NCBI RefSeq assembly: GCF_000764495.1
Contig: NZ_JRLB01000042.1
Coordinates: 1-64,000 of the forward strand
DNA from: Nitrincola sp. A-D6
Lineage (GTDB): Bacteria > Pseudomonadota > Gammaproteobacteria > Pseudomonadales > Balneatricaceae
Reading direction: 5' to 3'
DNA length: 64,000 nucleotides
Of the stretch, positions 610-18,861 are shown piece by piece. Each line of letters starts with the position of its first letter. Position 1 is the stretch's first letter. A model generated the notes under the pieces. That model did not search any database. It was not told where the DNA came from and saw only the letters and a list, made by a program, of their open reading frames with translations. A program made the translations under genes and the position numbers.

Positions 610-678
610 TAACGCCTCAATAACCGGCGCAGCTTTGCTGCGTCCGGCGCCGTAGGCGCGTAGTTTATTGACTTGTTA
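610..678 (-). repeat. attC site 1
   Basis: An imperfect palindrome bounded by TAACGCC on the left and TTGTTA on the right. It contains a GC-rich arm pair (ACCGGCGCAGC against GCTGCGTCCGGCGCC). It lies just after the stop of the 682-1380 gene (minus strand) and just before the start of the next gene, which is the expected place for a cassette recombination site. Confidence 0.8.
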
Positions 679-681
679 CAT

Positions 682-1380
682 TCACTTTCTAAATGAATCA
701 TCTGGATGAATTGAGCTTATACCACCCTTTGATAGATAGCCTTCAAAGCGCAATAGCTCATCATGTGCTAGATCAGTGGGGGAAAAAGCGTGTGAAACGT
801 AAAATTCATGATCCCAAGGGATATATCCCGAGGCTTTGAAGCAGTTTAAGACAAATTCTGAGCAGAATACTCTCTCCTCACTTGCCTTATCATAATTCGG
901 TTTCTTATCACCACCATGAATATATTTTCGATGTTCTTTCCTAAGCTTTGGTAAAGCTAGAGCTCCACTCAAATCATACTTTATGCTCTTGTCTTTACAT
1001 TCGTAAGTATATGACACCATCTCGGCAATACGATCTTCATTGAGGTATTGGCACCTTGAAATCACTATATATGTGTAGGAACCAATAAATTCATCGATAT
1101 CTATATGCCTGACGGCACCACCGGCAGAATCTGCGACTAGGTCATTCCCAATATATAATCCGCAATGGACATATATACCTTTGGTGAACTTTTGAATCGC
1201 TTTTGTTTTTACTTTTCCCTTAATTTCATTAGGTGGGCTCTGACAACAAAAGAGAACATCTCCCGGCTGTAAAATATTTTTATCAACTAGCTGGGGATAG
1301 CTCTTGCATAGAATTAGCCCATCAATTAAATGCTCATTACCGTTTTGATCGAATTCAGAGATTTTTGCCATTAACTTCAT
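682..1380 (-). CDS. Permuted NlpC/P60-like (YiiX-type) cysteine hydrolase
   Basis: 232 residues. The features of the permuted papain-fold family are visible in order: a PGDVLFC segment near residue 40, a catalytic-type His in VHCGLYIGNDLVADS (about residue 71), and a Cys in RVFCSEFVLNCF (about residue 173). In this family the His precedes the Cys because the fold is circularly permuted. Members cleave amide or ester bonds in peptidoglycan or lipids, or act as thioesterases, so the substrate here is unknown. No signal peptide is seen, so the protein is probably cytoplasmic. It is a single-gene integron cassette, its stop 3 bases from attC 1 and its start 20 bases from attC 2. ATG 1380 was taken, and a second ATG three codons in is possible. 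Confidence 0.65.
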   Translation of the reverse strand: MKLMAKISEFDQNGNEHLIDGLILCKSYPQLVDKNILQPGDVLFCCQSPPNEIKGKVKTKAIQKFTKGIYVHCGLYIGNDLVADSAGGAVRHIDIDEFIGSYTYIVISRCQYLNEDRIAEMVSYTYECKDKSIKYDLSGALALPKLRKEHRKYIHGGDKKPNYDKASEERVFCSEFVLNCFKASGYIPWDHEFYVSHAFSPTDLAHDELLRFEGYLSKGGISSIHPDDSFRK

Positions 1381-1400
1381 ACCACGTGAGGCTGGGAATG

Positions 1401-1500
1401 TAACGCCGTTGTTCAGCGGCAGACTTGGCAGAGCGAAGCGGTGACAAGGCTGTCCGGTGGAGGGCCATTCGGCCCGGAACGAACTGCAACACTTGGTTAG
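1401..1500 (-). repeat. attC site 2
   Basis: About 100 bp from TAACGCCG to CTTGGTTAG, longer than most in this array. It contains an internal GTCCGGTGGAGGGCC / GGCCCGGAAC stem also seen in attC site 10, suggesting that the two cassettes share a source. Confidence 0.8.
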
Positions 1501-1508
1501 GCTATATG

Positions 1509-1910
1509 CTACAGATCCGATTCATGGTTTATACCGTCACTGACCGGAACATTATCGATATCATGGGGGTTTACGCCCGCCAAACACCCAACATTAAACC
1601 CATAAACATTTGGATTAGAGCGTGTTTGGTGGTGGGTGTAAATACCACAGTTCGAACAAAAATAGTGCTTTGCGACTTTTGAATGAAACTGATAGAGCTT
1701 GAGTTGCTCCGCGCCTTTAACGACACGTAGACCACTCAATGGCACATAGGCCATAACTGCGCCTTTGCGCGCGCAAATGGAACAATTACACCTTTTCGGA
1801 TCCACAAGACCATCAGGCAGGTCGAGCTCAAGTTGCACCATGCCACAATGGCACGTAGCCCTGTGCCTGAGTTGTATCTCAACTCCGCCTACTTGTTTGA
1901 GCATTGCCAT
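1509..1910 (-). CDS. GFA/CENP-V family zinc protein
   Basis: 133 residues with the cysteine signature of the GFA (glutathione-dependent formaldehyde-activating enzyme-like) family: CHCG near residue 20, CNCSIC near 40 and FCSNCG near 85, which together bind two zinc ions. Family members are small soluble proteins. Some bind glutathione adducts, but most have no proven reaction, so the exact role is not claimed. The length matches the family. The gene fills a single cassette between attC sites 2 and 3. Start ATG 1910 was chosen because it opens the conserved frame; a second Met follows two codons later. Confidence 0.85.
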   Translation of the reverse strand: MAMLKQVGGVEIQLRHRATCHCGMVQLELDLPDGLVDPKRCNCSICARKGAVMAYVPLSGLRVVKGAEQLKLYQFHSKVAKHYFCSNCGIYTHHQTRSNPNVYGFNVGCLAGVNPHDIDNVPVSDGINHESDL

Positions 1911-1925
1911 GGCCTCTTTTTAGCC

Positions 1926-2004
1926 TAACGCCCGCAGCACGCGCGGCTTTGTAGTGGAGGCGAAGCCGCAACGAAAAAGCCGTCGCTTTGCCTGCGATTG
2001 TTAT
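1926..2004 (-). repeat. attC site 3
   Basis: Runs from TAACGCCCG to GTTATA. It carries the GCGGCTTTGTAGTGGAGGC / GAAGCCGCAACG arms that recur at sites 7, 8, 9 and 12, which is the dominant attC type in this array. Confidence 0.85.
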
Positions 2005-2720
2005 ATTTGCCTGACTGCATAGTTTTCAGCCTGTCTGTACGCGTCACGCAATGACTTAGGCAAAACACTTAATAGAGCTTCTTTTAGAAAAGATTGCGCA
2101 ACATCGCTACCCTTTTTATCACTAAACGACCATGCATCTGCATTGTCATTGCTTGCAGCATACCGGATGATACTTTCCATCAGAGACCGAACCGAACTGA
2201 AGGCTTCATCTTTTTTCATTTTTTCCAGATTGCAGACCAGTGCAGTGTGTATATTTAACTCTTCTAGATTATCAGATGGCGTTACGTCTAAGAGCAAAAG
2301 CTCGTTTTCCCCACTGTACTGCCAGTTGGTTTTTGCTTCAAAAGCTTCTACTGCAGACACGAAGGAATTGTCACTGTAGCTCCAGCCTACACCGTCAATT
2401 TTCGTAACAGCCTGAAGATCAGGATATTTATGCTTAGGCCAATAGGCTCCATACCCACAACAAAATATGTCTATATGCTCTTTTGAACGGTGATGAAAAT
2501 AACTAAGGGAACCTAGTATTTCAGTCTTACAAAAATTGGTATTCGGGTTACAAAAAAGAACTGCAACAAGGCAGCGTTTTTTGATCTTTGAATTTATGTC
2601 TGCCATCGCCTGTGACGATGCAGGGCTGACTCCGTCAAAAACAACCACCCGCTTTGGGGCTGCATTGAGTTTTTTATTCACGGAGTCAGCAATATCCTTG
2701 TACTGGATAGCGTCAATCAT
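2001..2720 (-). CDS. Cassette protein of unknown function
   Basis: 239 residues, stop codon inside attC 3 and start ATG at 2720. I do not recognise a domain. The N-terminal third looks like an alpha/beta fold (KRVVVFDGVSPASSQ, then CLVAVLFCNPNTNFC), followed by a Gly/Tyr-rich stretch (CCGYGAYWPKHKYPD) and a helical C-terminal half. No signal peptide or membrane segment is seen. Codon use is AT-richer than in the core genes to the right, consistent with acquisition. It is a single-gene cassette. Confidence 0.7.
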   Translation of the reverse strand: MIDAIQYKDIADSVNKKLNAAPKRVVVFDGVSPASSQAMADINSKIKKRCLVAVLFCNPNTNFCKTEILGSLSYFHHRSKEHIDIFCCGYGAYWPKHKYPDLQAVTKIDGVGWSYSDNSFVSAVEAFEAKTNWQYSGENELLLLDVTPSDNLEELNIHTALVCNLEKMKKDEAFSSVRSLMESIIRYAASNDNADAWSFSDKKGSDVAQSFLKEALLSVLPKSLRDAYRQAENYAVRQI

Positions 2721-2741
2721 TGTCTCATAATCTCCAAAATA

Positions 2742-2825
2742 TAACGTAGAGCTAACCGGCGCTGCGCGGCTTTATCGCGCAGCGTCCAGCGACTGAAAGG
2801 AGCGAGGTTGAGCGCCGGGTTAGGC
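2742..2825 (-). repeat. attC site 4
   Basis: Runs from TAACGTAGAG to GGGTTAGG, with arms CTAACCGGCGCTGCGCGGC and GCGCAGCGTCC and a second GAGCGCCGGGTTAG. It overlaps the end of the 2820-3566 gene by a few bases, as is common for cassette genes. Confidence 0.8.
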
Positions 2826-3566
2826 CTCGGACAGTTGAGGGATGCAAGCATAAGAGTCAAAGGACTGTGCCTCGGCCTTAAAGGATTGATGAAGTGGGAA
2901 CGACCGCCAAGTATCGGTATATGCCAGATTCAATATTGTGGTCAATTCGACATAGGTAAATACTGTGTCGAATCCTTCGCTGGCGATTGATTTCGCAAAA
3001 TTCCACGCCCAAAGCTGCCAGGACGTAAGCCCCGCAGTTTTGCTTGGAAGAGGAACGCCCCTAATTTTTAGAAATGCCATCCAATCCATGTGAATTCCAC
3101 CATTCAGGTCTCTTTGACGCTCACATTCGTACAGAAGGCGCTCAAAGCCCGCTCCGTAGGAAGAATTTATGCGCCTCGTGACGAGCGCGAGGCGGATGAA
3201 ATAGGTAGTGTGTTCCCTCGTGAACCTTGATGACGGGTGCAGATGATCAACTTGCCAATCGGCTGATAGTGATGTCGGTTCAATTTCGTAGTACTTGTTT
3301 AGGAAGCGTCGAAATGCCTGTCGATAGCCTCTATAGCCATTTCGAACCCACAGTTCAGGTTCCAGATTTTCCTTCGTAACAACCAAAGCCGAAATCGGGC
3401 TAATGCGACCGATTCCTTCAATGGACCAGTTGTATTCCGTCGAGTGTCTCTGCAAACGTTCGCGTGTAGTAGCGATTAAGCACGTACCCATTCGATCTCG
3501 AAAGTCTTCAAGGACACTTTTCTGTTGAAGCTCCAAGAACCGACGAACATTTGCGGAAATAGTCAT
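2820..3566 (-). CDS. Cassette protein with possible HNH-type motif
   Basis: 248 residues from ATG 3566. The middle contains ADWQVDHLHPSSRF (about residues 103-116), similar to the first part of HNH nuclease motifs (DHxxP), followed about 25 residues later by RRINSSYG. A complete HNH signature with the late Asn and His is not clear, so nuclease activity is only a suggestion. The C-terminal part has aromatic-rich segments (LTSWQLWAWNFAK). No membrane segment. It sits as a single cassette between attC sites 4 and 5. Confidence 0.6.
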   Translation of the reverse strand: MTISANVRRFLELQQKSVLEDFRDRMGTCLIATTRERLQRHSTEYNWSIEGIGRISPISALVVTKENLEPELWVRNGYRGYRQAFRRFLNKYYEIEPTSLSADWQVDHLHPSSRFTREHTTYFIRLALVTRRINSSYGAGFERLLYECERQRDLNGGIHMDWMAFLKIRGVPLPSKTAGLTSWQLWAWNFAKSIASEGFDTVFTYVELTTILNLAYTDTWRSFPLHQSFKAEAQSFDSYACIPQLSEA

Positions 3567-3576
3567 GGGAGAGGCC

Positions 3577-3647
3577 TAACGTTTGGTTAAGGGGCGGGCT
3601 TTAGCCCGTCCCAGTGAGCGAAGCGAACGATTTGAACCAGTTGTTAG
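3577..3647 (-). repeat. attC site 5
   Basis: Runs from CCTAACGTTTGG to GTTGTTAGCGG, with an inner GGGGCGGGCTTTAGCCCGTCCC palindrome. It separates the 2820-3566 and 3644-4117 cassettes. Confidence 0.8.
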
Positions 3648-4117
3648 CGGTTCTCCGAGAGTTCCACTGCTTTGCCATCACCGAACCCATCATGTACCCA
3701 TACTTTCGCTGGAACAGCGTAACTCCAACCTCCAGCTTTCCACCAGCACTCAGCAAACCAATATTTTATAGTGTTGGCTGCCAAGGTGAGGCCGTTAAAT
3801 TCTTCGTCAGAGAAATACCTTTCGTCGAATGGCTCCATATTTTCTAAGCCAACCGAAAGCTCCATGGCCCTGCCTGGAAAAATGGATGGGTCGCTGTGGT
3901 CTACTTTGTTATTTTCTCCACGGTAGTAGATCCACGCCGTTGGGATATCAAGACCATCTTCACCAAGAAATATTTGAACCTCTGCATCTTTCACAGAGTT
4001 TGGAACGGAAATAGAAAAAAGTTCTCTTAGTTCGTCAATAAGGTGTTGAGACGTACGTTCTAAGCAGCGACGGTAGCGTGCTTGAAATTGTTCTTTACTG
4101 AGGCCAAATGGAATCAT
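3644..4117 (-). CDS. Small cassette protein of unknown function
   Basis: 157 residues from ATG 4117, with its stop overlapping attC 5. It is acidic and tryptophan-rich near the C-terminus (YWFAECWWKAGGWSYAVPAKVW). The N-terminal part is helical (QFQARYRRCLERTSQHLIDELREL). No signal peptide or membrane helix. I recognise no named domain. It is a single-gene cassette between attC sites 5 and 6. Confidence 0.7.
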   Translation of the reverse strand: MIPFGLSKEQFQARYRRCLERTSQHLIDELRELFSISVPNSVKDAEVQIFLGEDGLDIPTAWIYYRGENNKVDHSDPSIFPGRAMELSVGLENMEPFDERYFSDEEFNGLTLAANTIKYWFAECWWKAGGWSYAVPAKVWVHDGFGDGKAVELSENR

Positions 4118-4130
4118 GTGTTGATACCGC

Positions 4131-4206
4131 TAACGCCTAAGCACACGGGCGGCCACGTAGTGGACGTCCCAGCCGCCAACGGCGGCGACGTGCTGCGACT
4201 GGTTAT
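4131..4206 (-). repeat. attC site 6 (identical type to site 13)
   Basis: Runs from TAACGCCTAAGC to TGGTTATGG with GCGGCCACGTAGTGG / CGGCGGCGACGTGC arms. It differs from attC site 13 (8204-8279) at one visible base. It is the recombination site of the following gene-less cassette. Confidence 0.85.
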
Positions 4207-4455
4207 GGATGCTGGAGTGGCACGATGAAACGGTAATTTGCATAGCCAGCCCCTGGCACCCTGATAAAAATACAGATGCCGATATTGGCAGTATCCCTTC
4301 TTACTGGCAACCCACAATACGAAGTACGTTTTGTGACTTACCTGCTAGCAGCACCGGAACGGAACTACTGAATATTGATACTTGGTGTTGCGCTAAAAAG
4401 GTAGTGAAGGTTACACATACTTACCGAAGCAAACGTTCACGATGCCTTGCAGCCA
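4131..4455 (-). mobile_element. Gene-less integron cassette, copy A
   Basis: A 325-bp unit consisting of attC site 6 plus about 250 bp of body, repeated almost exactly at 8204-8528 (I count nine substitutions and no indels). Open frames exist on both strands of the body, but they run through the attC sites, lack good ribosome binding sites, and the differences between copies change amino acids in each frame without a bias toward silent sites. I therefore call no protein. The body may carry a small RNA, a promoter or nothing functional. On the cassette strand short peptides with ATG starts (11-16 codons) are present, but coding cannot be shown. Confidence 0.75.
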
Positions 4456-4536
4456 TAACGCCGCTCAGCACGAGCGGCTTTGTAGTGAAGGCGAGGCCGA
4501 AACGGAAAAGCCGTCGCTGTGCCTGGCCTGGTTAAG
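4456..4536 (-). repeat. attC site 7
   Basis: Runs from TAACGCCGCTC to GGTTAAG with the dominant GCGGCTTTGTAGTGAAGGC / GAGGCCGAAACGG arm type. It lies directly after the stop of the GNAT gene at 4532-5008. Confidence 0.85.
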
Positions 4537-5008
4537 TTGCATGTTGCTCAATCTTTAAATGAATGAGTGCCACACGGTCTCCGTTGTAATCAACCCGTTG
4601 CTCAATGCCGTAAGGCTGGAAACCAAGCTTGGGGTAAAAGAGCAAACCTGCTACGTTTCGATTAAAGCATGACACTGAAACTGTTTTCGCGCGATGCTTC
4701 TCGAACCCCAGTTTGAGCATATGATTGATTAAATAGCGACCCACCCCAGAGCCTCTGGCTCCAGAAGCTACAACAACGTTACCGATTGAGCATAGCCCTT
4801 TCTCCCACCGATAAAAATTCGCGAAGGCAACAACCTGCCCAGCGACTTCGACTACGGTTGAGTCTGAACGCTTTTCAATGCTCTGTCGCACCTCAGCTTC
4901 CGACAATGGGAAGGCAGCACTCGGATAGCAGTAAAAAAGTTCTTCTCGTGTTTCCGAGAGCTTACAAATCTCAGGAATGTCAGATTCAGCCACTTCTCGA
5001 TGATGCAC
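4532..5008 (-). CDS. GNAT-family N-acetyltransferase (cassette)
   Basis: 158 residues from ATG 5008. The GNAT fold is recognisable: IGNVVVASGARGSGVGRYL (about residues 75-93) contains the acetyl-CoA pyrophosphate loop (R-G-x-G-x-G), followed by the SVSCFNRNVAGLLFYPKLGFQP motif typical of the C-terminal strand-helix pair. The acceptor substrate (amine of an amino acid, antibiotic or protein) cannot be told from sequence. It is cytoplasmic and in a single-gene cassette. It is one of three unrelated-looking GNATs in this array. Confidence 0.85.
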   Translation of the reverse strand: MHHREVAESDIPEICKLSETREELFYCYPSAAFPLSEAEVRQSIEKRSDSTVVEVAGQVVAFANFYRWEKGLCSIGNVVVASGARGSGVGRYLINHMLKLGFEKHRAKTVSVSCFNRNVAGLLFYPKLGFQPYGIEQRVDYNGDRVALIHLKIEQHAT

Positions 5009-5027
5009 TGGATCCCTCCATGCAATT

Positions 5028-5106
5028 TAACGCCGCCAACACGCGCAGCTTTGTAGTGAAGGCGAAGCCGCAACGGAAAAGCTGTCGCCGTGCTTGGCTT
5101 GGTTAT
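5028..5106 (-). repeat. attC site 8
   Basis: Runs from TAACGCCGCCAAC to TTGGTTATAAG. Dominant arm type, with GCAGCTTTGTAGTGAAGGC and GAAGCCGCAACGG. Confidence 0.85.
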
Positions 5107-5740
5107 AAGCCAATGTATTTAAGGGCTGCATCAGCTTCAGTATAATCCTGAATAGATTGAGAGCTGGAAATGCGATCTCCGACTGAAACAAAATTATATC
5201 CCAGTGTTTCAGATGCCTTTTGATCCCAAGGGCCGTCGCAAAGTAGGTTATAGAATCTAAATGCTTAATACCTGCGGTCTTTTCGGCCAATCGCATAATC
5301 TCAGTCCTGCTATAGTGGTCCGAAGAAGAGACCAGCGGTATTGACGAGAAGTTTATCCCGGCAGCTACAAGCTTCATCCGCGCCGATTCACTCCAACCAC
5401 CAGTCGCAAAGGCTACCGTGACATTTTCACGCGCGATGAGTTGGGATAAAAACTCATGTGCACCGGATATCGGGGCTACATCATGACACGCGATGTAATC
5501 TGCTACGCGACTCACGAACTGCTCTTTAACTTCCGTAGTAATTCGATCAGCGTCACTTTTGAGATCTAGTTCATCTATCACCTCGGCAAGAATACCGGAA
5601 TCAGTCACATGTTTGTAGCGACTCCAATCAGGCCCTACCGTCACACCCAACACATCCTCGACAGCGGCTTGAAAGCACTCCGTATCGAAATCGTATGACT
5701 CAACCAATGTTCCGTCTATGTCAAACAAGACTAGGTTCAC
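5103..5740 (-). CDS. HAD-superfamily hydrolase (cassette; single-base frameshift near 5239)
   Basis: The protein begins at GTG 5740 with the HAD motif I, LVLFDIDGTLVES. Motif II appears as AFATGGWSES, and the reading continues to DSITYF near base 5243. There the frame breaks: one missing G (on the coding strand) would restore a motif III/IV-like GDGPWDQKASETLGY and a natural stop at 5103-5105, at the edge of attC 8. Without the correction the frame reads through the attC into junk. The length (about 212 residues) and cap size suit a phosphoglycolate-phosphatase-like HAD, a phosphomonoesterase with an unknown substrate. The shift is probably a sequence error. Confidence 0.8.
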
Positions 5741-5760
5741 TACCCCTCCATCTTGGCTTA

Positions 5761-5839
5761 TAACGCCGCCAGCACGCGCGGCTTTGAAATGGAGGCGCAG
5801 CCGCAATGGAAAGCCGTCGCCGTGACGGGCCTTGTTAGG
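5761..5839 (-). repeat. attC site 9
   Basis: Runs from TAACGCCGCCAGC to CTTGTTAGG. Dominant arm type with GCGGCTTTGAAATGGAGGC. It separates the HAD and protease cassettes. Confidence 0.85.
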
Positions 5840-5859
5840 CGAAGACTCATGAAACTGGG

Positions 5860-6639
5860 TCAAACAATACATTGAAAAATGTGCTCTATTGGAGTGGCTG
5901 TAACAACACCTGCTTTTGAAGATGCTCCCCACACAATTCCAGTAACTCGCATATCATTCACGCTCCAATTTCGACCCTGTTCTGAAACTTCTTGGTACCG
6001 AGTATTCCAGAGAACCGAGCCGCTTAGCCCTCCAGGAACCGAAAGGTGCGTCGCTGCCTCTGTAAGCGATGTAGCGTTGGCTGGATTCCAGGCCATGCAA
6101 ATGTGGTATCCATCTTTAAAAGGTGGGTGTTCAGAGAACAGTTCTGGTGGTGGGTCTACTTCATGCAGGTAAGCACCTAGACCTTTTACATTATGTTGGC
6201 CCCACAAAGCCTGTGAGTCCGCTCCAGGAAACCCTTGTAAGTAAAGATACTCTCCCTCGACCGGCTGATGTTTTTTGTCAAATGAAGCTAGTGGTATGCT
6301 CTTTCCGTTATGTGAAATTCGGTTCCATGTTCTGGATGCATCTGCAATTGCAAAGTCGACTGGATGAGCTTTCAGTAAAAATGGGCGCCCGACATTTATA
6401 CCGCAATCACCACCAAAAGGCGCATACCCTATCTTTCCTTTAGCCTGAAAATTCGCAACATGCTCGCATGTACAAATCTGCACAGCTCCATGCTTTTCAA
6501 CAAACCAGCCAGTTCCATGATGGTCGCCAGGCGGGGTGCGATCATCTCCATCTGGAATAAAAAGTATCGGGCATATGAACTGGTCTACAAAATCCCAAGC
6601 CTGTTCAATAATGCCTTTAGGTGGAAGATGGGTTTTCAA
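5860..6639 (-). CDS. Trypsin-like serine protease (cassette)
   Basis: 259 residues from ATG 6639. The chymotrypsin-fold triad is visible: His in QICTCEHVANF (about residue 59, after GTGWFVEKHG), Asp in HPVDFAIAD (about 95), and Ser in VPGGLSGSVLWN (about 205), the last being the GxSGS nucleophile box. No signal peptide is seen, so unlike secreted trypsins this one is predicted to act in the cytoplasm. Such stand-alone cytoplasmic trypsin-like domains are known as effectors in bacterial conflict systems, but no sensor partner is encoded beside it, as the cassette holds one gene. The substrate is unknown. Confidence 0.75.
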   Translation of the reverse strand: MKTHLPPKGIIEQAWDFVDQFICPILFIPDGDDRTPPGDHHGTGWFVEKHGAVQICTCEHVANFQAKGKIGYAPFGGDCGINVGRPFLLKAHPVDFAIADASRTWNRISHNGKSIPLASFDKKHQPVEGEYLYLQGFPGADSQALWGQHNVKGLGAYLHEVDPPPELFSEHPPFKDGYHICMAWNPANATSLTEAATHLSVPGGLSGSVLWNTRYQEVSEQGRNWSVNDMRVTGIVWGASSKAGVVTATPIEHIFQCIV

Positions 6640-6683
6640 TTCATAGTTCCTTTGGGGCCAAATTTTTCAGTCAACAATACGCC

Positions 6684-6768
6684 TAACGTCTGAGCTAAGC
6701 GGCGCGGCTTTAGCCGCGTCCGGTGGAGGCCCGAAGGGCCGGAACGTACTTGAGCGACTTGTTAGGCT
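6684..6768 (-). repeat. attC site 10
   Basis: Runs from CCTAACGTCTG to ACTTGTTAGG, with GGCGCGGCTTTAGCCGCGTCC and GGAGGCCCGAAGGGCCGG stems. The inner stem resembles that of attC site 2. Confidence 0.8.
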
Positions 6769-6777
6769 CATGCATCT

Positions 6778-7157
6778 CTACTGGCAGGCACTGGTCCGTT
6801 GAGCGCCATATCTGGCTTGGGCCTGTGTGTAACCATCTCCAGCGTCTGAAGAAAGCTGTCTAATGAGGCCGCTGCAGGAGAAGCCCTGAATACTTAGGTA
6901 CTGTTCTGCAGATCTAACCGCCTGCTGGTTCCAGTCCACGTTCAGGCTATCAACGGCAGCGGTTGCATCTGCCTGCTATAGCCGTCGCCGAAATCGGAGG
7001 AAAGCTGTTTGATGAGGCCGCTCCGGGAGAAGCCCTGAAAGCTGAGGTACTGCTCGGCTGATCTAACAGCATTCTTCTGAGGGCCCGTAAGGTTATCGGC
7101 CCATGTAACGGGGACTACAAATACGAAAACAATAATAGCTACTTTGAATAGCTTCAT
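6778..7157 (-). CDS. Exported Ltp-repeat protein (cassette; frameshift near 6973)
   Basis: Starts at ATG 7157, preceded by a GGGAGAG ribosome binding site. MKLFKVAIIVFVFVVPVTWA is a clear signal peptide. Two repeats follow, each of the NAVRSAEQYLSFQGFSRSG type with GLIxQLSS and GDGY, characteristic of the Ltp (host cell surface-exposed lipoprotein) domain. The second repeat lies in another frame: restoring one G in a GG run near 6973 joins them (ADATAAVDSLNVDWNQQ linker) and gives a stop at 6778-6780, next to attC 10. Some phage Ltp proteins block superinfection at the membrane, but the function here is not known. Confidence 0.75.
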
Positions 7158-7187
7158 GGTCATCTCTCCCTTTTTGGCAGTTGAGCC

Positions 7188-7231
7188 TAACGCCGCGTTC
7201 ACCGGCTTGTCCGGTGCAACGCTTGGTTAGC
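7188..7231 (-). repeat. attC site 11 (short)
   Basis: A compact palindrome of about 44 bp from CCTAACGCCGCG to GCTTGGTTAG, with ACCGGCTTGTCCGGT at the centre. It is the shortest site in the array. Confidence 0.75.
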
Positions 7232-7656
7232 GATCAATGTTTTGCACATAAATATAGCTGATGCTGGGCACAGCCCAGTGAACTGAGCCGAATTTGCTAT
7301 AAAAGTCGGAGCTTGGCTTCTAGGTACAACCTCATAACCAAGCTGTGGAAAAAAATCGGCTGCCGTAGTTGTTAGAAGGTACAAGGAGTTAATGCCACTT
7401 TCACCTGCCCATGCTTCCGCTTTAGCAACTAATTTCTGGCCACAACCTACCTTGCGATAAGCCTTGCCCACGACCAAGGAGCGTAATAAACCAACATTCT
7501 CGTGTGACTCTATTCCAACAATGCCGATGATGCGACCATCAACGCGCACCCCGAATATTTTAGCTGATCGGAACTACGCAGGTCTGAAACAGGAAGTCCC
7601 TCGCCTACCAGAAGCGCTTCAATTTCATCATTCAATTCGATTGGTTCTATATTCAT
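7199..7656 (-). CDS. GNAT acetyltransferase (cassette; frameshift near 7559)
   Basis: The predicted start is ATG 7656 (MNIEPIELNDEIEALL). The frame breaks near 7559, where one extra A in an AAAA run would continue LKIFGVRVDGRIIG into the downstream open frame. The acetyl-CoA loop LRSLVVGKAYRKVGCGQKL and the C-terminal YLLTTTAADFFPQLGYEVV are typical of GNAT proteins of the amino-acid/ArsN2-like group. The final residues run into attC 11, with the stop at 7199-7201. The substrate is unproven. The break is most likely a sequence error, because it is one base in a homopolymer. Confidence 0.75.
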
Positions 7657-7669
7657 GACTTTTGACCGC

Positions 7670-7749
7670 TAACGCCGCAAGCAAGCGCGGCTTTGTAGTG
7701 TAGGCGAAGCCGCAACGGAAAAGCCGTCGCCTTGACTTGCATTGTTAAG
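7670..7749 (-). repeat. attC site 12
   Basis: Runs from TAACGCCGCAAGC to TTGTTAAGC. Dominant arm type (GCGGCTTTGTAGTGTAGGC / GAAGCCGCAACGG). Confidence 0.85.
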
Positions 7750-8200
7750 CACTGAACCTCACCTGAAATCCTTGCTTGCTAGGGCTAAAACCTGAAGACT
7801 CGTAGAACCTATACGTCGCAGGATCTTTTGAGCCGGTCATAAGCCCAACTTTATAGCAGCCAGCCCGTTGCGCGAAGGCTTGTGCGTACTGCAGGATAGC
7901 TTTGCCCACACCCTGCCCTCGATATGCTTTAGAAACGATGACGTTTTCTATGATGGCGTAGGAGCGACCGGACCAACTCAGATTAGCGCAAATGTTCACA
8001 GTGCAGGTGCCGACCAAACCTTCTACGGCAAAAGCACCTACAACACACCCACCAGACTGGAGTATAGAAGCGAAGACGTTTTGTACTTCATCGTCGGTAG
8101 GTCTCGGTGACTTGGGTCGGTCATATTCGTCATATAGATCCAGCACCTCAACAATCTCTGCAATCTGTACTTGCCGAATCTCCATAGTGGCTCTCTTCAT
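7745..8200 (-). CDS. GNAT-family N-acetyltransferase (cassette)
   Basis: 151 residues from ATG 8200 (a second Met five codons in is an alternative start). The GNAT core is visible: ENVIVSKAYRGQGVGKAIL (about residues 87-105) holds the R-G-x-G-x-G/A acetyl-CoA motif, and GLMTGSKDPATYRFYESSGF is the usual closing strand and helix. It is a different sequence from the other two GNATs in the array, so it was not produced by local duplication. The substrate is unknown. Single-gene cassette between attC sites 12 and 13. Confidence 0.85.
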   Translation of the reverse strand: MKRATMEIRQVQIAEIVEVLDLYDEYDRPKSPRPTDDEVQNVFASILQSGGCVVGAFAVEGLVGTCTVNICANLSWSGRSYAIIENVIVSKAYRGQGVGKAILQYAQAFAQRAGCYKVGLMTGSKDPATYRFYESSGFSPSKQGFQVRFSA

Positions 8201-8203
8201 GCT

Positions 8204-8279
8204 TAACGCCTAAGCACACGGGCGGCCACGTAGTGGGCGTCCCAGCCGCCAACGGCGGCGACGTGCTGCGACTGGTTAT
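8204..8279 (-). repeat. attC site 13
   Basis: Runs from TTAACGCCTAAGC to TGGTTATGG, nearly identical to attC site 6. It belongs to the second gene-less cassette. Confidence 0.85.
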
Positions 8280-8528
8280 GGATGCTGGAGTGGCACGATA
8301 AAACGGTAACTTGCATGGCCAGCCCCTGCCACCCTGATAAAAATACAGATGCCGATATTGGCAGTAACCCTTCTTACTGGCAACCCACAATACGAAGTAC
8401 GTTTTGTGACTTACCTGCTAGCAGCACCGGAACGGAACTACTGAGTATTGATACTTGGTGTTGCGCTAAAAAGGTAGTGAAGGTTGCACATACTTTCCGA
8501 AGCAAACGTTCACGATGCCTTGCAGCCA
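8204..8528 (-). mobile_element. Gene-less integron cassette, copy B
   Basis: The second copy of the 325-bp unit at 4131-4455, with the same length and about 97% identity. The copies start and end exactly at attC core positions, which fits duplication as a circular cassette rather than by unequal crossing over. No convincing coding sequence is seen (see copy A). Confidence 0.75.
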
Positions 8529-8584
8529 TAACGTCCCAAATCAGCCGCGCGGGTTTTGCGTCGGCTGAATTTGGTTGTTATGCG
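8529..8584 (-). repeat. attC site 14
   Basis: Runs from TAACGTCCCAAATC to GGTTGTTATGCG, with ATCAGCCGCGCGGG and GCGTCGGCTGAATTTGG arms. It overlaps the 3' end of the 8541-9395 gene. Confidence 0.75.
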
Positions 8585-9395
8585 AATCTGTGCTGGAACC
8601 CCAAGAAGAAAAATCAAGTAGGGGCGGCAACTTGATCAAGCCAGCTTGAACCATAGCCATAAACACAAGCAGAATGGTTAATGAAACCATTTTTCTTTGT
8701 AGTTTCACAGCCTCCGAGTGCCTGCGTTCCTCCTCTTCGTACCTTTCCAGGGTACTGATAGCTTTTCCTGTCACCACGTACTCATGATTGAGATTGTTCA
8801 GCTCTCCTGACTCAACCAAAGAATCAAGATATAGCTCTAGTTTTTGCTGTTGTTCGTCAGCTGATGGATGAAGTACCCAATTCGTGGAATAGAGCTTCGT
8901 CATTAAATCGATTATTCCAATTCCATTATGTTCGCGATCGAGCTGATCATTCATCATAAACTCAAGCAATTCCATTCTCTTTTTCGTAACCAGCTTTCGC
9001 TTGTTGAAGAAATATTTATGGGTGGCTTCTATATACCGGACAACACTAATTTTTAGGTATTCGAGCCTTGACACGTGGTGGAATGCAAAATCAAATATGC
9101 TGTCATACGTTACAGTTGCAAGACCATAGTAGTGAGTTATTCTTAGCTCGTAATCTCCAATATCCTCCAAGGAAACCGAGTGTTCGTCTGAATACGAACG
9201 ACCATCCCAGCGTAACCCGCTAAGCACATTTGCTTCGTATGCCGTTGCGATGAAGAATGGCTCGCCGTTTGTGTCCAACGATACAACAAAACAATTTACA
9301 CGCGCTCCAGCATCTCCAGAGCGTGGAATTCTCGACTCACATGCTCTCGACAACAGTATAGGAAGCAACCAACGGTAGAAAATATTTCTAATCAA
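8541..9395 (-). CDS. Cassette protein with C-terminal membrane anchor, unknown function
   Basis: An open frame ending inside attC 14. Upstream it extends through attC 15, so the real start must lie below about 9428. No ATG is available there, and TTG 9395 (giving MIRNIFYRWLLP) is a guess. The body is soluble and helical (residues rich in Glu/Arg around LERYEEEERRHSEAVK, probably coiled coil). A hydrophobic segment SLTILLVFMAMVQAGL near the C-terminus looks like a membrane anchor. A short hydrophobic N-terminal stretch may be a second one. I recognise no domain. Confidence 0.55.
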   Translation of the reverse strand: MIRNIFYRWLLPILLSRACESRIPRSGDAGARVNCFVVSLDTNGEPFFIATAYEANVLSGLRWDGRSYSDEHSVSLEDIGDYELRITHYYGLATVTYDSIFDFAFHHVSRLEYLKISVVRYIEATHKYFFNKRKLVTKKRMELLEFMMNDQLDREHNGIGIIDLMTKLYSTNWVLHPSADEQQQKLELYLDSLVESGELNNLNHEYVVTGKAISTLERYEEEERRHSEAVKLQRKMVSLTILLVFMAMVQAGLIKLPPLLDFSSWGSSTDSHNNQIQPTQNPRG

Positions 9396-9428
9396 GCAAA
9401 ATTCCCCACATATCCGAACTACTGCGCA

Positions 9429-9490
9429 TAACGCCTTGCTCTGGGGCAAACCGAAGCGAAGCGTAGGTTTGAAGTATATTGACTTGTTAT
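9429..9490 (-). repeat. attC site 15
   Basis: Runs from TAACGCCTTGCTC to GACTTGTTATGC, with the GGGCAAACCGAAGCG / CGTAGGTTTG pair. It follows the stop of the 9487-10758 gene. Confidence 0.75.
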
Positions 9491-10758
9491 GCATTCGAGT
9501 CATAGTAAATATCGAATACATAAACACGAACCTGAATTAGCCGACTATCATCATCTTTAGACATAAATTCGTAGTGCCATTCACCCTCACTAATATTTTT
9601 CATATGCTTTTTAAATCGAGGATGAGATTTAAGTATTTCAGGCGTTTTCTCTAGTAGTTCAGTGAACTTTTTGTTGTGCTTATTAAATATAATGATAGAG
9701 GCTTTGCAGTCTCGCCAAGTAAGGTACCCGAGCAGTTGGTCTATCGCTTTGCTCAGCTCGGATGCGCCTCTCCATATTTTACACTCAGCGATAAATGCTG
9801 CTCTATTATCGCTTTCAATTTTTATATCTGTTTTTCCTAACTTTCTAAAAGCTTCACCAGTAGCTGCGCCTTTATAATGCCCATTTAAATGAGCAAGAAT
9901 TATATCCCGTAGCTCTTCTTCATCATGAACGGCGTACGTTCTTGGAGTTGCCTCAAAGGTTGCGCCTTCATGTCTTATAACCGAGAGAATGTGCTCATAA
10001 TCATCTACTGTTATTCCAGGCTCAGCTTTATAGCCAGATTGAGGAGGCGGAGGCAACGGTTTCACTAGGTTTTTCTTTATATCTATAGGCTTAAAGCTAG
10101 GTGCCGAGCTATTTCTTTTCATTGGAATATTAAGGAAGTCAGCGAGTCCATCGCGCTTATTCAATCTTTCTCTTCTGGCTTCCACAAGTTTTCTGACATT
10201 TATTTCAAGAGCTTCGTTATGCCCTTTAATCTGAGACAATTGGCCATTTATATAAAAACGAACCCCATCTAGGACATTGTCAAGATGCGCTTTTATTTGT
10301 TGTTGTGGCTCGTCGACAGGTTGTTGTATGACTATATCAAGATATCCAACACCATTCCTGTTAGGAGATCGAATATCTCCATGCGGAATAGTTGACCTCC
10401 ACTGATTCGGCTTTAATTTCCATAACGAAGGATCTCCCGTATATGGAATGGATATAGTTACCTTAATTCCTGGCACCATTATTGGACCGCTGTCACCAAA
10501 TGGATTTCGGTTACGATTATGGCTTACGTCAACCCTCACTTCTTGCTGATCCATTTCAGCTCTATCTTCATGCAGCTCTATAGGTCGAACATACAAATCA
10601 TTAACAATGTGGGCTACTACATCATCAATGGGGGTTGCTAAAAATTGATCCTGACCAATAGCGTCAACTTTGTCTTTGGCTGTTCTTGCATGATGATCTA
10701 GGGTCGCACTAAGGTCACCATCCCAAAATAATGTGTTTTCCCTGCCTCGTCCGTACAT
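9487..10758 (-). CDS. Cassette protein with PD-(D/E)XK-like nuclease domain
   Basis: 423 residues from ATG 10758. The C-terminal third has the order expected of a restriction-endonuclease fold: Glu in GAATGEAFRKLG, Asp in KTDIKIES, then AFIAECKIWRG (E-x-K), followed by a helix with conserved-looking AIDQLLGYLTW and a strand ASIIIFNK. This is the layout of PD-(D/E)XK nucleases. The N-terminal 230 residues match nothing I recognise; a proline-rich linker (PLPPPPQSG) joins the halves. No membrane segment. A lone nuclease-fold protein in an integron cassette suggests phage defence, but no modification partner is adjacent and activity is unproven. Confidence 0.65.
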   Translation of the reverse strand: MYGRGRENTLFWDGDLSATLDHHARTAKDKVDAIGQDQFLATPIDDVVAHIVNDLYVRPIELHEDRAEMDQQEVRVDVSHNRNRNPFGDSGPIMVPGIKVTISIPYTGDPSLWKLKPNQWRSTIPHGDIRSPNRNGVGYLDIVIQQPVDEPQQQIKAHLDNVLDGVRFYINGQLSQIKGHNEALEINVRKLVEARRERLNKRDGLADFLNIPMKRNSSAPSFKPIDIKKNLVKPLPPPPQSGYKAEPGITVDDYEHILSVIRHEGATFEATPRTYAVHDEEELRDIILAHLNGHYKGAATGEAFRKLGKTDIKIESDNRAAFIAECKIWRGASELSKAIDQLLGYLTWRDCKASIIIFNKHNKKFTELLEKTPEILKSHPRFKKHMKNISEGEWHYEFMSKDDDSRLIQVRVYVFDIYYDSNA

Positions 10759-10784
10759 CTACTTTTGAACTCCGTGTTTATGCA

Positions 10785-10858
10785 TAACGCCCAGCTCACG
10801 CGCCGGTTTGTAGCCGCCAAGCAGCGTAAAAGCGGTCGCTGTGCAGCCGATTGTTATA
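10785..10858 (-). repeat. attC site 16
   Basis: Runs from TAACGCCCAGCTC to TTGTTATAC, with CGCGCCGGTTTGTAGCC and AAAAGCGGTCGC arms, a variant of the dominant type. It is the rightmost site I can identify. Confidence 0.8.
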
Positions 10859-10861
10859 CAA

Positions 10862-11077
10862 TCACTCAGTATTATTTTTGAAAAAAGCAGTGACTTTTTT
10901 CAAAACATATATATATATAAAAACCACCAAAACAATATAAGCACAAAGAACGACACCAATAACTAATTTATTGCTCAAGTAGCTTAAAAGAACAAAAATT
11001 CCATAGATAGCAAGGGCCCAATACAATAAACCCAAAATCTCATCAATCAACGTGAATTTTGATATGTAATATGCCAT
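10862..11077 (-). CDS. Two-helix membrane protein, possible immunity partner
   Basis: 71 residues with two predicted transmembrane segments (LLYWALAIYGIFVLLSYL and VLCAYIVLVVFIYIYVL) and a Lys-rich C-terminal tail. The start ATG 11077 lies 39 bases downstream of the stop of the 11117-11815 gene on the same strand, so they are probably co-transcribed within one cassette. A small inner-membrane protein after a larger one with an amphipathic, glycine-rich helix pair is the usual layout of pore-forming effector and immunity genes. That reading is inference. Confidence 0.6.
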   Translation of the reverse strand: MAYYISKFTLIDEILGLLYWALAIYGIFVLLSYLSNKLVIGVVLCAYIVLVVFIYIYVLKKVTAFFKNNTE

Positions 11078-12216: not shown

Positions 12217-12275
12217 TGGTGCCCCGAACCGGACTCGAACCGGTACAGCCTTTCAGCCGAGGGATTTTAAGTCCC
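12217..12275 (-). repeat. att direct repeat, 3' fragment of tRNA-Leu(UAA)
   Basis: These 59 bases are identical to 18719-18777, the 3' two-thirds of the intact tRNA-Leu(UAA) gene. Identity stops just after the anticodon stem, so this copy is not a tRNA gene. It marks the left boundary of the 6.5-kb element. The original tRNA 3' end stayed here and the element brought the replacement. Confidence 0.95.
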
Positions 12276-12442: not shown

Positions 12443-13758
12443 ATGGCTAAGGTATCGTTTACAGCAAAACGCATCAGAGAGCTCACTTGCCCAGCCGACA
12501 AGCGGCAGGCGTTCTTATGGGATACTACAGCGCCCGGGCTGGGCTTGCGCATCACGCCAACCGGAAAGCCCGCCTATGTATTCCAGAGCGTTTACCAAGG
12601 CAAAACCCTACGCATCACTATTGGCAGCCAGAGGCATGGTCGATCACCGACGCTCAGGGTAAAGCTCGGGAATTACAAAGACTGATTGATGAGGGGATCG
12701 ATCCACGCGAGAAAAAACGGCAGACCCTGGCAAAAGCGGAAGCGGCCAAGGCAAGACAGACCGCCGAAGCCGTCACCGTGGCCGAAGTGTGGAAGGCGTA
12801 TATTGCCGCCCGTTCGCATAAATGGGGAGAACACCACAAGAAAGACCATGCACGGCTGGCGCGCTCACCTGGCACCACCAAGACAGGCAAGCCAACCAAT
12901 GCCGGTCCTTTGCATTTTTTCATGAGCAAGCGCCTAGCCGAGCTTTCCCCCACCATGATTGAGCACTGGGCATACGATGAAGGCAAGACCCGCCCCACAG
13001 CAGCCCGGTTAAGTTGGCGGCTACTCAAGGCGTTCTTGACGTGGTGCAGCAATCAGGACGAATACCAAGCCCTGACGCCTGACAATCCCGCAAGCACCAA
13101 GACAGCACGCGAATCACTGGGCACACCACAGGCCAAGACTGACTCACTAGAAAAGGGCCAGCTACCGGCGTTCTTTACCGCAGTGCAGGGCCTGAATAAT
13201 CCGACCATCGCCGTCTACATTCAGAGCCTGCTACTCACTGGCGCAAGGCCCGGGGAATTGTTGGCGCTCAAATGGGCAGACGTTAATGGCAAATGGCAGA
13301 GCATTACGATACGGGACAAGGACTCAAGCAAAGGCGGCATTGAAGGCACCCGCACCCTACCCCTCACCCCTTACGTTCATCACCTGCTGGCAAGCTTACC
13401 CAAGCGTAGCGAATGGGTCTTTTCCAGTGCTACCAAGCGCCAGCCAATAAACCCACCCCATACCCGCTTAGCCGAAGCTGTGCAGGTAGCTGGACTGGAT
13501 AGTCTGACCCTTCACGGTTTGCGGCGTTCGTTCGGCAGCTTATCAGAATGGCTAGAGCTACCGGCTGGCGTGGTGGCGCAAATCCAAGGTCACAAGCCTA
13601 GCGCAACAGCGGAACGGCATTACCGTGTTCGCCCGCTCGACCTGTTACGAGTTCACCATGAACGCTTTGAGGCGTGGATTCTGAAACAAGCGGGTATCGA
13701 CTTTGAACCACAGCAACAGCCCGGCGCGTTGCGCGTGGTGGCAGGCGGGGAGTCGTGA
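12443..13758 (+). CDS. P4-type tyrosine integrase (frameshift near 12628)
   Basis: Starts at ATG 12443 with the DUF4102 arm-binding domain (FTAKRIRELTCPADKRQAF, then TTAPGLGLRITPTG). At about 12628 the frame must change: one extra C in AGCC would join KTLRITIGS to PEAWSITDAQGKARELQRL, the normal continuation in this family. The catalytic domain follows in the second frame with all expected residues: Arg in LTGARPGELLALKW, His-x-x-Arg in LHGLRRSFG, GH in QGHKPSATAE and Tyr in RHYRVRP. Corrected length is about 438 residues, normal for P4-like integrases. It catalyses site-specific recombination with the tRNA-Leu gene. Next to attL/R and the arm repeat. No slippery sequence is seen, so sequence error or recent inactivation is likelier than programmed shifting. 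Confidence 0.9.
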
Positions 13759-18718: not shown

Positions 18719-18804
18719 TGGTGCCCCGAACCGGACTCGAACCGGTACAGCCTTTCAGCCGAGGGATTTTAAGTCCCTTGTGTCTACCAATTTCACCATC
18801 GGGC
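18719..18804 (-). tRNA. tRNA-Leu(UAA), intact
   Basis: 86 nt with encoded CCA, acceptor GCCCGAT/GTTCGGGGC-type pairing, long variable arm and anticodon TAA in the GACTTAAAATCC loop. The 3' 59 bases (18719-18777) are duplicated at 12217-12275 and act as the attachment site of the element, whose integration keeps the tRNA intact. It is the first gene of a Leu-Cys-Gly tRNA group upstream of pgsA's 3' side. Confidence 0.95.
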
Positions 18805-18861
18805 TGAACGTCGCTGGAACTGTGCCGGCGATTATTTTGTGGCATGGTGCAGAAAAGAGAA

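What the first reader, a model, noticed from the sequence alone, without database searches (positions are those of the whole stretch)
9487..10758. Cassette-encoded PD-(D/E)XK-like nuclease with novel N-terminal half
The C-terminal E...D...E-x-K order and following helix fit a restriction-endonuclease fold. The 230-residue N-terminal half is unlike anything I recognise. No methylase is present, and single-cassette defence genes are a known theme of integrons, so this may be a compact, undescribed anti-phage protein.
Basis: partly seen in the sequence, partly recalled or inferred. Interest (0 to 1): 0.7.

Follow-up and report, generated by a model that had tools for sequence, protein, structure and literature searches.

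The report
Integron-borne single-gene defence nuclease candidate
A mobile gene cassette carries what looks like a DNA-cutting enzyme, probably a one-protein defence against viruses or plasmids, from a family already listed as a defence candidate, although we found no report of a test in the papers we could search.

Summary
The 423-aa gene at 9487-10758 (-) is real: a single-ORF integron cassette of about 1356 bp (9432-10787) with an attC-like site on each side. Orthologues (91% identical) lie in two MAGs titled Oceanospirillaceae and Kangiella; homology stops at the cassette core sites, and dN/dS is 0.02-0.06.

The C-terminal 170 residues are predicted to be a PD-(D/E)XK nuclease: E, D311, E325-C-K327 and Q341 are invariant in 36 aligned homologues, and the AlphaFold core's structural neighbours are mostly nucleases (modest Z).

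"Undescribed" is wrong: PADLOC holds the protein end to end as candidate PDC-S54 (E=4e-133). Homologues are sporadic in bacteria, archaea, plasmids and phages. Some sit in known defence loci: between HsdS and a type I REase, directly after BrxL, after a type IIG enzyme. Neighbours hit 309 PADLOC models, controls 8 (a coarse contrast).

The nuclease module also occurs behind other N-termini, including NACHT, suggesting sensor plus effector. The N-terminal domain folds confidently (pLDDT 92) but matched no solved fold convincingly.

Most likely a stand-alone anti-phage or anti-plasmid DNase that works like Shedu without being one. Defence activity is inferred, not shown.

The parts
9487..10758 (-). 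CDS of the 423-aa nuclease (PDC-S54 homologue)
   Evidence: ORF; PADLOC PDC-S54 E=3.8e-133 over residues 7-418; purifying selection
10135..10758 (-). N-terminal domain, residues 1-208: three helices, four strands, then a long helix (153-208)
   Evidence: AlphaFold of residues 8-212 alone, pLDDT 91.8; best VIA-align Z 5.3, no confident fold; P105 and G108 invariant
10135..10302 (-). Long helix, residues 153-208, possible coiled coil / oligomerisation arm (inferred)
   Evidence: DSSP of both models
10009..10134 (-). Proline-rich linker, residues 209-250, low model confidence
   Evidence: pLDDT under 50 at 210-233, 238-242 and 244-246
9508..10008 (-). C-terminal PD-(D/E)XK nuclease domain, residues 251-417
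   Evidence: Secondary-structure order in the model; VIA-align Z 8.4 OkrAI, 8.0 BamHI
9826..9828 (-). Codon of the presumed catalytic Asp D311 (GKTDI)
   Evidence: Invariant in 36 of 36 rows
9778..9786 (-). Codons of E325-C326-K327 (E-x-K motif)
   Evidence: Invariant in 36 of 36 rows
9432..10787 (-). The gene cassette (core to core, cut taken between G and TTA), about 1356 bp, one ORF
   Evidence: attC cores; homology to L002 and L003 begins at the upstream core and ends at the gene's own stop/TAAC
10759..10788 (-). Cassette 5' leader, nearly identical in the three cassette-borne orthologues; possible ribosome-binding leader (inferred)
10785..10856 (-). attC of the preceding cassette; about 92% identical to an attC in plasmid-borne integrons
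   Evidence: not kept by the stricter scan
9429..9489 (-). attC of this cassette; the gene's stop codon lies in its first core
   Evidence: not kept by the stricter scan
610..10856 (-). attC array, 11 candidate sites in one orientation
   Evidence: also one weak candidate on the + strand at 3720-3797; stricter scan 7 on -, 0 on +, 0 in the rest of the window, means of 60 shuffles 0.02 and 0.07

Best explanation
A stand-alone defence nuclease of the PADLOC candidate family PDC-S54, carried as one integron cassette. Shown by sequence or by prediction: a conserved N-terminal alpha/beta domain with a long helix, a flexible linker and a PD-(D/E)XK nuclease domain with an intact motif, in a mobile, sporadically distributed, strongly constrained gene whose distant relatives often lie among defence genes. 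Inferred: the N-terminal domain keeps the nuclease off until it meets a cue of invading DNA or of infection; the long helix drives dimer or higher assembly; the active C-terminal domains then nick or cut DNA, either the invader's own or, as suicide, the host's. It works like Shedu (one protein, variable N-terminal sensor, C-terminal PD-(D/E)XK DNase) without being a member of Shedu.
For: Full-length PDC-S54 match, E=3.8e-133. Motif residues invariant in 36 of 36 rows. AlphaFold mean pLDDT 82.4; in the VIA-align list 26 of the first 29 rows are known nucleases by name (some names, such as OkrAI, Can2, NucC and SduA, recognised from memory), all 29 aligned within model residues 245-423. omega 0.023 and 0.056. 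Relatives lie between a type I specificity subunit and a type I REase (L046), overlap the end of BrxL as called (L015), follow a type IIG enzyme (L031), lie downstream of REase_II (L017, L021) or beside REase_III (L044). 309 PADLOC models hit by 147 neighbours against 8 by 145 control ORFs. On plasmids in 26 of 72,556 records, in 2 of 50,697 phage records, in 13 viral contigs; 2 of 398 genomes of the phylum, own included. Nuclease module found behind other N-termini in 7 relatives, one with NACHT.
Against: No activity was tested. Foldseek gave no PDB match at E<=0.001 (best E 0.11, to an unrelated protein); VIA-align's top Z of 8.4 is modest, and acetyl-CoA carboxylase rows appear at Z 5.0-5.1. 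The N-terminal domain as a sensor is inference only, and the oligomeric state was not modelled. Of 20 neighbouring proteins scanned singly, 9 had no PADLOC match at 1e-10. The window's own neighbours that got a Pfam name are ordinary cassette genes (GNATs, GFA, peptidases), not a defence island.
Confidence: 0.6

Rival explanations
1. A modification-dependent (type IV-like) or orphan sequence-specific restriction endonuclease: the N-terminal domain reads modified bases or a sequence and the C-terminal domain cuts, with no need of an infection cue.
For: The nuclease core's top fold rows are OkrAI and BamHI, Z 8.4 and 8.0; no methylase in the scanned cassettes, as expected for type IV; several relatives sit beside R-M genes.
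Against: No recognisable base-reader domain: N-terminal best Z 5.3 (ribosome recycling factor), Foldseek nothing at E<=0.001. A long linker and other N-termini on the same nuclease (NACHT and unnamed ones) fit a triggered effector better.
Confidence: 0.2
2. A suicide (abortive-infection) effector whose real target is host DNA or RNA, kept inert by the N-terminal domain.
For: Fold rows include NucC, Can2 and Cdn1, effectors that degrade nucleic acid when triggered (their mode recalled); a NACHT fusion exists in L033.
Against: The cassette holds no second-messenger synthase or partner gene; nothing in the sequence chooses between host and invader DNA.
Confidence: 0.13
3. A DNA-repair, recombination or mobile-element maintenance nuclease with no defence role.
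For: Fold rows include EndoMS and a Pyrococcus repair endonuclease; the gene occurs on plasmids and in viral contigs; umuD and a Y-family polymerase lie beside it on one plasmid.
Against: Sporadic distribution, 2 of 398 and 3 of 369 genomes, own included; concentration of defence genes around relatives.
Confidence: 0.07

Closest known systems
PADLOC candidate PDC-S54 (PDLC05036)
   Same: Whole protein matches the profile, residues 7-418 to positions 4-407 of 410.
   Different: No tested difference; the window copy belongs to a cassette-borne subclade with L002 and L003. The family is a prediction; no held paper names it.
Shedu (SduA, SduA_C/DUF4263)
   Same: Single protein with a C-terminal PD-(D/E)XK nuclease and a separate N-terminal domain; SduA is in the fold list at Z 5.9, rmsd 4.2, 124 aligned, 17% identity. 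A review says EcSduA binds DNA ends by an N-terminal clamp and nicks at a fixed distance (PMC12904381, passages).
   Different: No SduA_C Pfam match; profile comparison only 19.7% probability, though it lines up the D, E-x-K and Q positions; no similarity of the N-terminal domains was found, but they were not compared directly.
NucC / Can2 / Cdn1 effector nucleases
   Same: Same nuclease superfamily; Z 6.0-7.3 over 101-132 residues.
   Different: Those are switched by cyclic oligonucleotides (recalled); no such sensor domain was recognised here.
phrog_9664
   Same: Phage protein family of unknown function matching residues 268-420, E=5.2e-8.
   Different: Matches the nuclease half only.
Anti-phage integron cassettes of Vibrio and of mobile integrons
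   Same: Defence genes carried as cassettes; a review reports at least 16 of 179 V. cholerae cassettes (88 tested) with anti-phage activity and nine of 57 tested in V. parahaemolyticus (PMC12409362, passages).
   Different: Different host and array; whether this family was among those tested could not be checked (primary papers not read).

Membership tests
PD-(D/E)XK nuclease superfamily | E ... D ... (D/E)-x-K active-site motif, conserved | tested here: met
   E280, E302, D311, E325-C-K327 and Q341 invariant in 36 of 36 rows; which E acts in catalysis was not determined
PD-(D/E)XK nuclease superfamily | Helix, three strands, helix, strand core | tested here: met
   Predicted H280-294, E303-310, E312-316, E319-328, H332-345, E352-359; VIA-align rows. 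Foldseek alone not significant
PD-(D/E)XK nuclease superfamily | Metal-dependent nuclease activity | not testable with these tools
   Needs purified protein
PADLOC PDC-S54 | Full-length match to the profile | tested here: met
   E=3.8e-133, 442.9 bits
PADLOC PDC-S54 | Embedded in or beside known defence loci | tested here: met
   Met for relatives: 10 of 18 loci whose neighbours were scanned singly have a PADLOC-matching neighbour. The window copy lies in a cassette array instead
PADLOC PDC-S54 | Demonstrated anti-phage activity | not testable with these tools
   No paper in the held library contains 'PDC-S54'
Shedu (SduA) | SduA_C (PF14082) nuclease domain | tested here: not met
   No Pfam family at E<=1; no match in the window's genome in the PF14082 search; hhalign probability 19.7 against 4 Shedu-type sequences
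Shedu (SduA) | N-terminal DNA-end clamp and homotetramer | not testable with these tools
   No complex prediction available
Type II restriction-modification | Cognate methyltransferase next to the nuclease | tested here: not met
   No methyltransferase family in the 3 nearest ORFs scanned or 10 further array ORFs
Type IV restriction | Modified-base recognition domain | tested here: inconclusive
   N-terminal domain has no named match, which does not exclude a new reader
Integron gene cassette | Single ORF with its own attC, bounded by GTTA cores, found as a unit in different arrays | tested here: met
   orthologues in L002 and L003 share no homology with the window beyond the cassette except one attC type
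Integron gene cassette | Integron integrase (IntI) near the array | tested here: inconclusive
   None over the cut-off in the window's MAG; the array runs to a contig end; the MAG that holds L003 has one on another contig

The most novel reading that the evidence does not exclude
The N-terminal domain is a new kind of invader sensor: a confidently predicted alpha/beta module with a 56-residue helix and no convincing solved relative, which licenses a nuclease module that evolution has also wired to NACHT and other N-termini; the integron clade is a compact, mobile form of this system.
Probability: 0.3. Interest if true: 0.6.

Novelty: new member of a known kind. Interest (0 to 1): 0.4.

Why it matters
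It places a predicted defence family, untested as far as our searches show, in the integron setting, as a self-contained cassette of about 1.36 kb with its own conserved leader that can be cloned and tested directly. The reuse of one nuclease module behind several unrelated N-termini makes the family a tractable test of how sensor swapping changes what a defence nuclease recognises.

Tried and rejected
Rejected: that it is an undescribed protein (PDC-S54); that it is Shedu; that it is half of an R-M pair. Tried without result: sequence search of solved structures, 0 hits for the single protein at E<=1 and for the profile 27 hits at E<=10, best 0.56, in the long-helix region; Foldseek against the PDB and viral models, nothing at E<=0.001; the N-terminal fold: best Z 5.3, and the START/Bet v 1-like rows (Z 3.5-4.9, mostly about 80-97 residues) are too weak to assign a fold. 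Pfam on the 36 rows of A1 gave only scattered weak matches (39 families at E<=0.5, the first 25 shown). Promoter scan over 9380-11000: 2 promoter-like sites against 4.2 in shuffles, so nothing to report. The N-terminal domain was sought on its own: 3 of 369 genomes matched, and the two besides the window also carry the nuclease.

Dropped before counts: 9 loci (L027, L033, L035, L037, L038, L040, L041, L043, L044) left out of the full-length set because they looked partial or had another N-terminus (L037 later proved full-length to PADLOC); L036 (masked stretch) and L039 (cut at its end) left out of A1, so A1 is 36 rows; L032, L036 and L039 left out of the tree. Of 165 neighbour ORFs, 147 were scanned: the 8 of L002/L003 and 10 others were left out to fit the size limit. 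Of 148 control ORFs, 145 were scanned, the 3 left out for size. The 20 neighbours scanned singly were chosen by hand, most of them large. Neighbour ORFs are mechanical (longest non-overlapping, 110 aa or more).

Full report
WHAT IS THERE. The ORF at 9487-10758 on the minus strand is intact, 423 aa, and is the only match in the window's genome. Two orthologues, 91% identical in protein and 81% and 86% in DNA, lie in MAGs titled Oceanospirillaceae (L002) and Kangiella (L003). dS is 2.1 and 0.81 while dN is 0.049 and 0.046, so the protein is under strong purifying selection, in the N part and the C part alike.

CASSETTE. Eleven attC-like sites in one orientation lie at 610-10856, with one weak site on the other strand. 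A stricter scan kept 7 on the minus strand, 0 on the plus strand and 0 in the other 51.5 kb, against means of 0.02 and 0.07 in 60 shuffles; it did not keep the two sites beside this gene, and it found none in L003. For the two the evidence is different. DNA homology to L002 and L003 begins at the upstream core and ends at the gene's stop codon, which lies in its own attC core. The attC upstream is about 92% identical to one in plasmids (23 of 72,556 records matched); in the two records inspected it lies between a cupin gene and a resistance gene, in one of them close to IntI1. In L002 an attC-like site lies on each side of the gene. In L003 the gene is followed by an attC that matches the window's 610-678 site at 83%, but upstream only the core is seen, the nearest attC-like site being about 200 bp away. 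So the attC bodies after the gene differ among the three orthologues, while the leader of about 30 bp differs at 1 and 3 positions only; the leader is probably functional (inference). No integron integrase passes the family cut-off in the window's MAG; the array meets the contig end, so its absence means little. L003's genome has one, on another contig.

NUCLEASE HALF. In the 36 rows of A1, E269, E280, R284, E302, D311, E325, C326, K327, Q341 and Y345 are among the invariant columns. AlphaFold gives mean pLDDT 82.4, with helix, helix, strands, helix, strand, helix in 251-377. Foldseek found nothing significant. VIA-align, a second look at the same list, put OkrAI (Z 8.4, rmsd 3.8, 143 aligned) and BamHI (8.0, 4.0, 139) first, then McrBC, Can2, NucC, Cdn1, EndoMS and SduA; 26 of the first 29 rows are known nucleases by name (the others are VC1899, AF1548 and SfsA), and unrelated acetyl-CoA carboxylase rows begin at Z 5.1. 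Motif and fold agree, so I take the nuclease core as established at the level of prediction.

N-TERMINAL HALF. Pfam and NCBIfam have nothing. Modelled alone it reaches pLDDT 91.8: helices 16-33, 36-41 and 44-55, strands 68-77, 94-107, 128-130 and 138-147, then a helix from 153 to 208 (full-length numbering). The best structural match is Z 5.3 (ribosome recycling factor); several helix-grip proteins follow at Z 3.5-4.9. I leave the fold unassigned. P105 and G108 are invariant.

FAMILY. PADLOC PDC-S54 matches end to end. [quoted passage not shown] No paper in the library contains 'PDC-S54'. Relatives are sporadic: 46 loci in genome contigs (46 of 67 pattern-matched stretches), 26 of 72,556 plasmid records, 2 of 50,697 phage records, 13 viral contigs (13 of 59 stretches), 2 of 398 genomes of the phylum with the own one counted; four of the 46 loci have archaeal record titles (L016, L024, L036, L043). 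On the tree of 35 rows the three cassette copies form one clade (100/100), next to Desulfatibacillum L008 (96/95); the Pseudomonadota rows need 5 changes against 7.3 when shuffled (25 of 500 shuffles as low), so transfer is likely but not proved.

MODULES. In 7 relatives (L033, L035, L038, L040, L041, L043, L044) the PDC-S54 match covers only the nuclease half and the N-terminus differs; L033 has a NACHT domain (E=1.7e-7). The E, D, E-C-K and Q columns are invariant in all 12 rows of that comparison; Y345 is not. This fits an effector module placed under different sensors.

NEIGHBOURS. In L046 the gene sits between a type I specificity subunit and a type I REase; in L015 the ORF as called overlaps by 4 bases the end of BrxL; in L031 it follows a type IIG enzyme; L017, L021, L044, L007, L010, L004 and L042 also have defence-type neighbours, some of them partial matches to helicase or methyltransferase regions. 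Singly scanned: 11 of 20 proteins, 10 of 18 loci, with a match at 1e-10. In bulk, 147 neighbours hit 309 PADLOC models and 145 control ORFs hit 8, with the caveats under Tried and rejected. In the 8 annotated plasmid and phage regions inspected the annotated neighbours differ, so no fixed partner is apparent; one has a type I S subunit and a restriction endonuclease within the region, one a SAVED-domain gene, one a NACHT gene, while the Rhizobium and Corynebacterium regions show no defence genes by annotation.

MECHANISM. Shown by sequence or prediction: intact nuclease motif and fold, separate conserved N-terminal domain, linker, no fixed partner, defence-rich surroundings of relatives, mobility. 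Inferred: N-terminal sensing, oligomerisation through the long helix, DNA as target, defence as purpose. The nearest working model is Shedu, described in a review as an N-terminal clamp that binds DNA ends and a PD-(D/E)XK domain that nicks at a fixed distance (PMC12904381, passages). Membership in Shedu fails on the SduA_C test, so I say 'works like', not 'is'.

NOVELTY. Single-gene anti-phage cassettes are an established theme (PMC12409362, passages), and this family is a listed candidate. What is added here is the cassette-borne clade with its conserved leader, the domain anatomy with its unnamed N-terminal fold, and the reuse of the nuclease behind other N-termini. I score it as a new member of a known kind, interest 0.4.

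Noticed in passing
window 12217-12275 and 18719-18777: A 59-bp exact direct repeat: the 3' part of the intact tRNA-Leu(taa) at 18719-18805 recurs at 12217-12275, beside an integrase-like ORF (about 12443-13758). This looks like a 6.5-kb element integrated in tRNA-Leu.
   Followed up: partly
window 4131-4430 and 8204-8503: A 300-bp stretch that includes an attC-like site occurs twice in the array at 97% identity, a sign of recent cassette duplication or attC sharing.
   Followed up: no
window 10785-10856: This attC is about 92% identical to one in Pseudomonas resistance plasmids, where in the two records inspected it follows a cupin gene; here it follows a 71-aa ORF: the attC type travels with different genes.
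   Followed up: partly
window 610-678; L002 4113-4181; L003 6270-6337: Related attC sites (97% and 83% to the window's) occur in the three MAGs at different genes; in L003 this type is the attC of the nuclease cassette itself.
   Followed up: no
window 8541-9431: Next cassette in the array: an ORF matching phrog_7611 (E=6.7e-16), a phage family of unknown function; not studied.
   Followed up: no
window 4532-5008, 7199-7549, 7745-8200: Three GNAT acetyltransferase ORFs in the same array, with a GFA-family gene (1509-1910) and a C92-family peptidase (682-1380).
   Followed up: no
L035 3702-5516 and L044 3954-5495: Relatives whose nuclease domain follows other, unnamed N-terminal regions that look alike by eye; L044 has a sub-threshold Pfam match to Phage_clamp_A (E=6.2e-5).
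   Followed up: no
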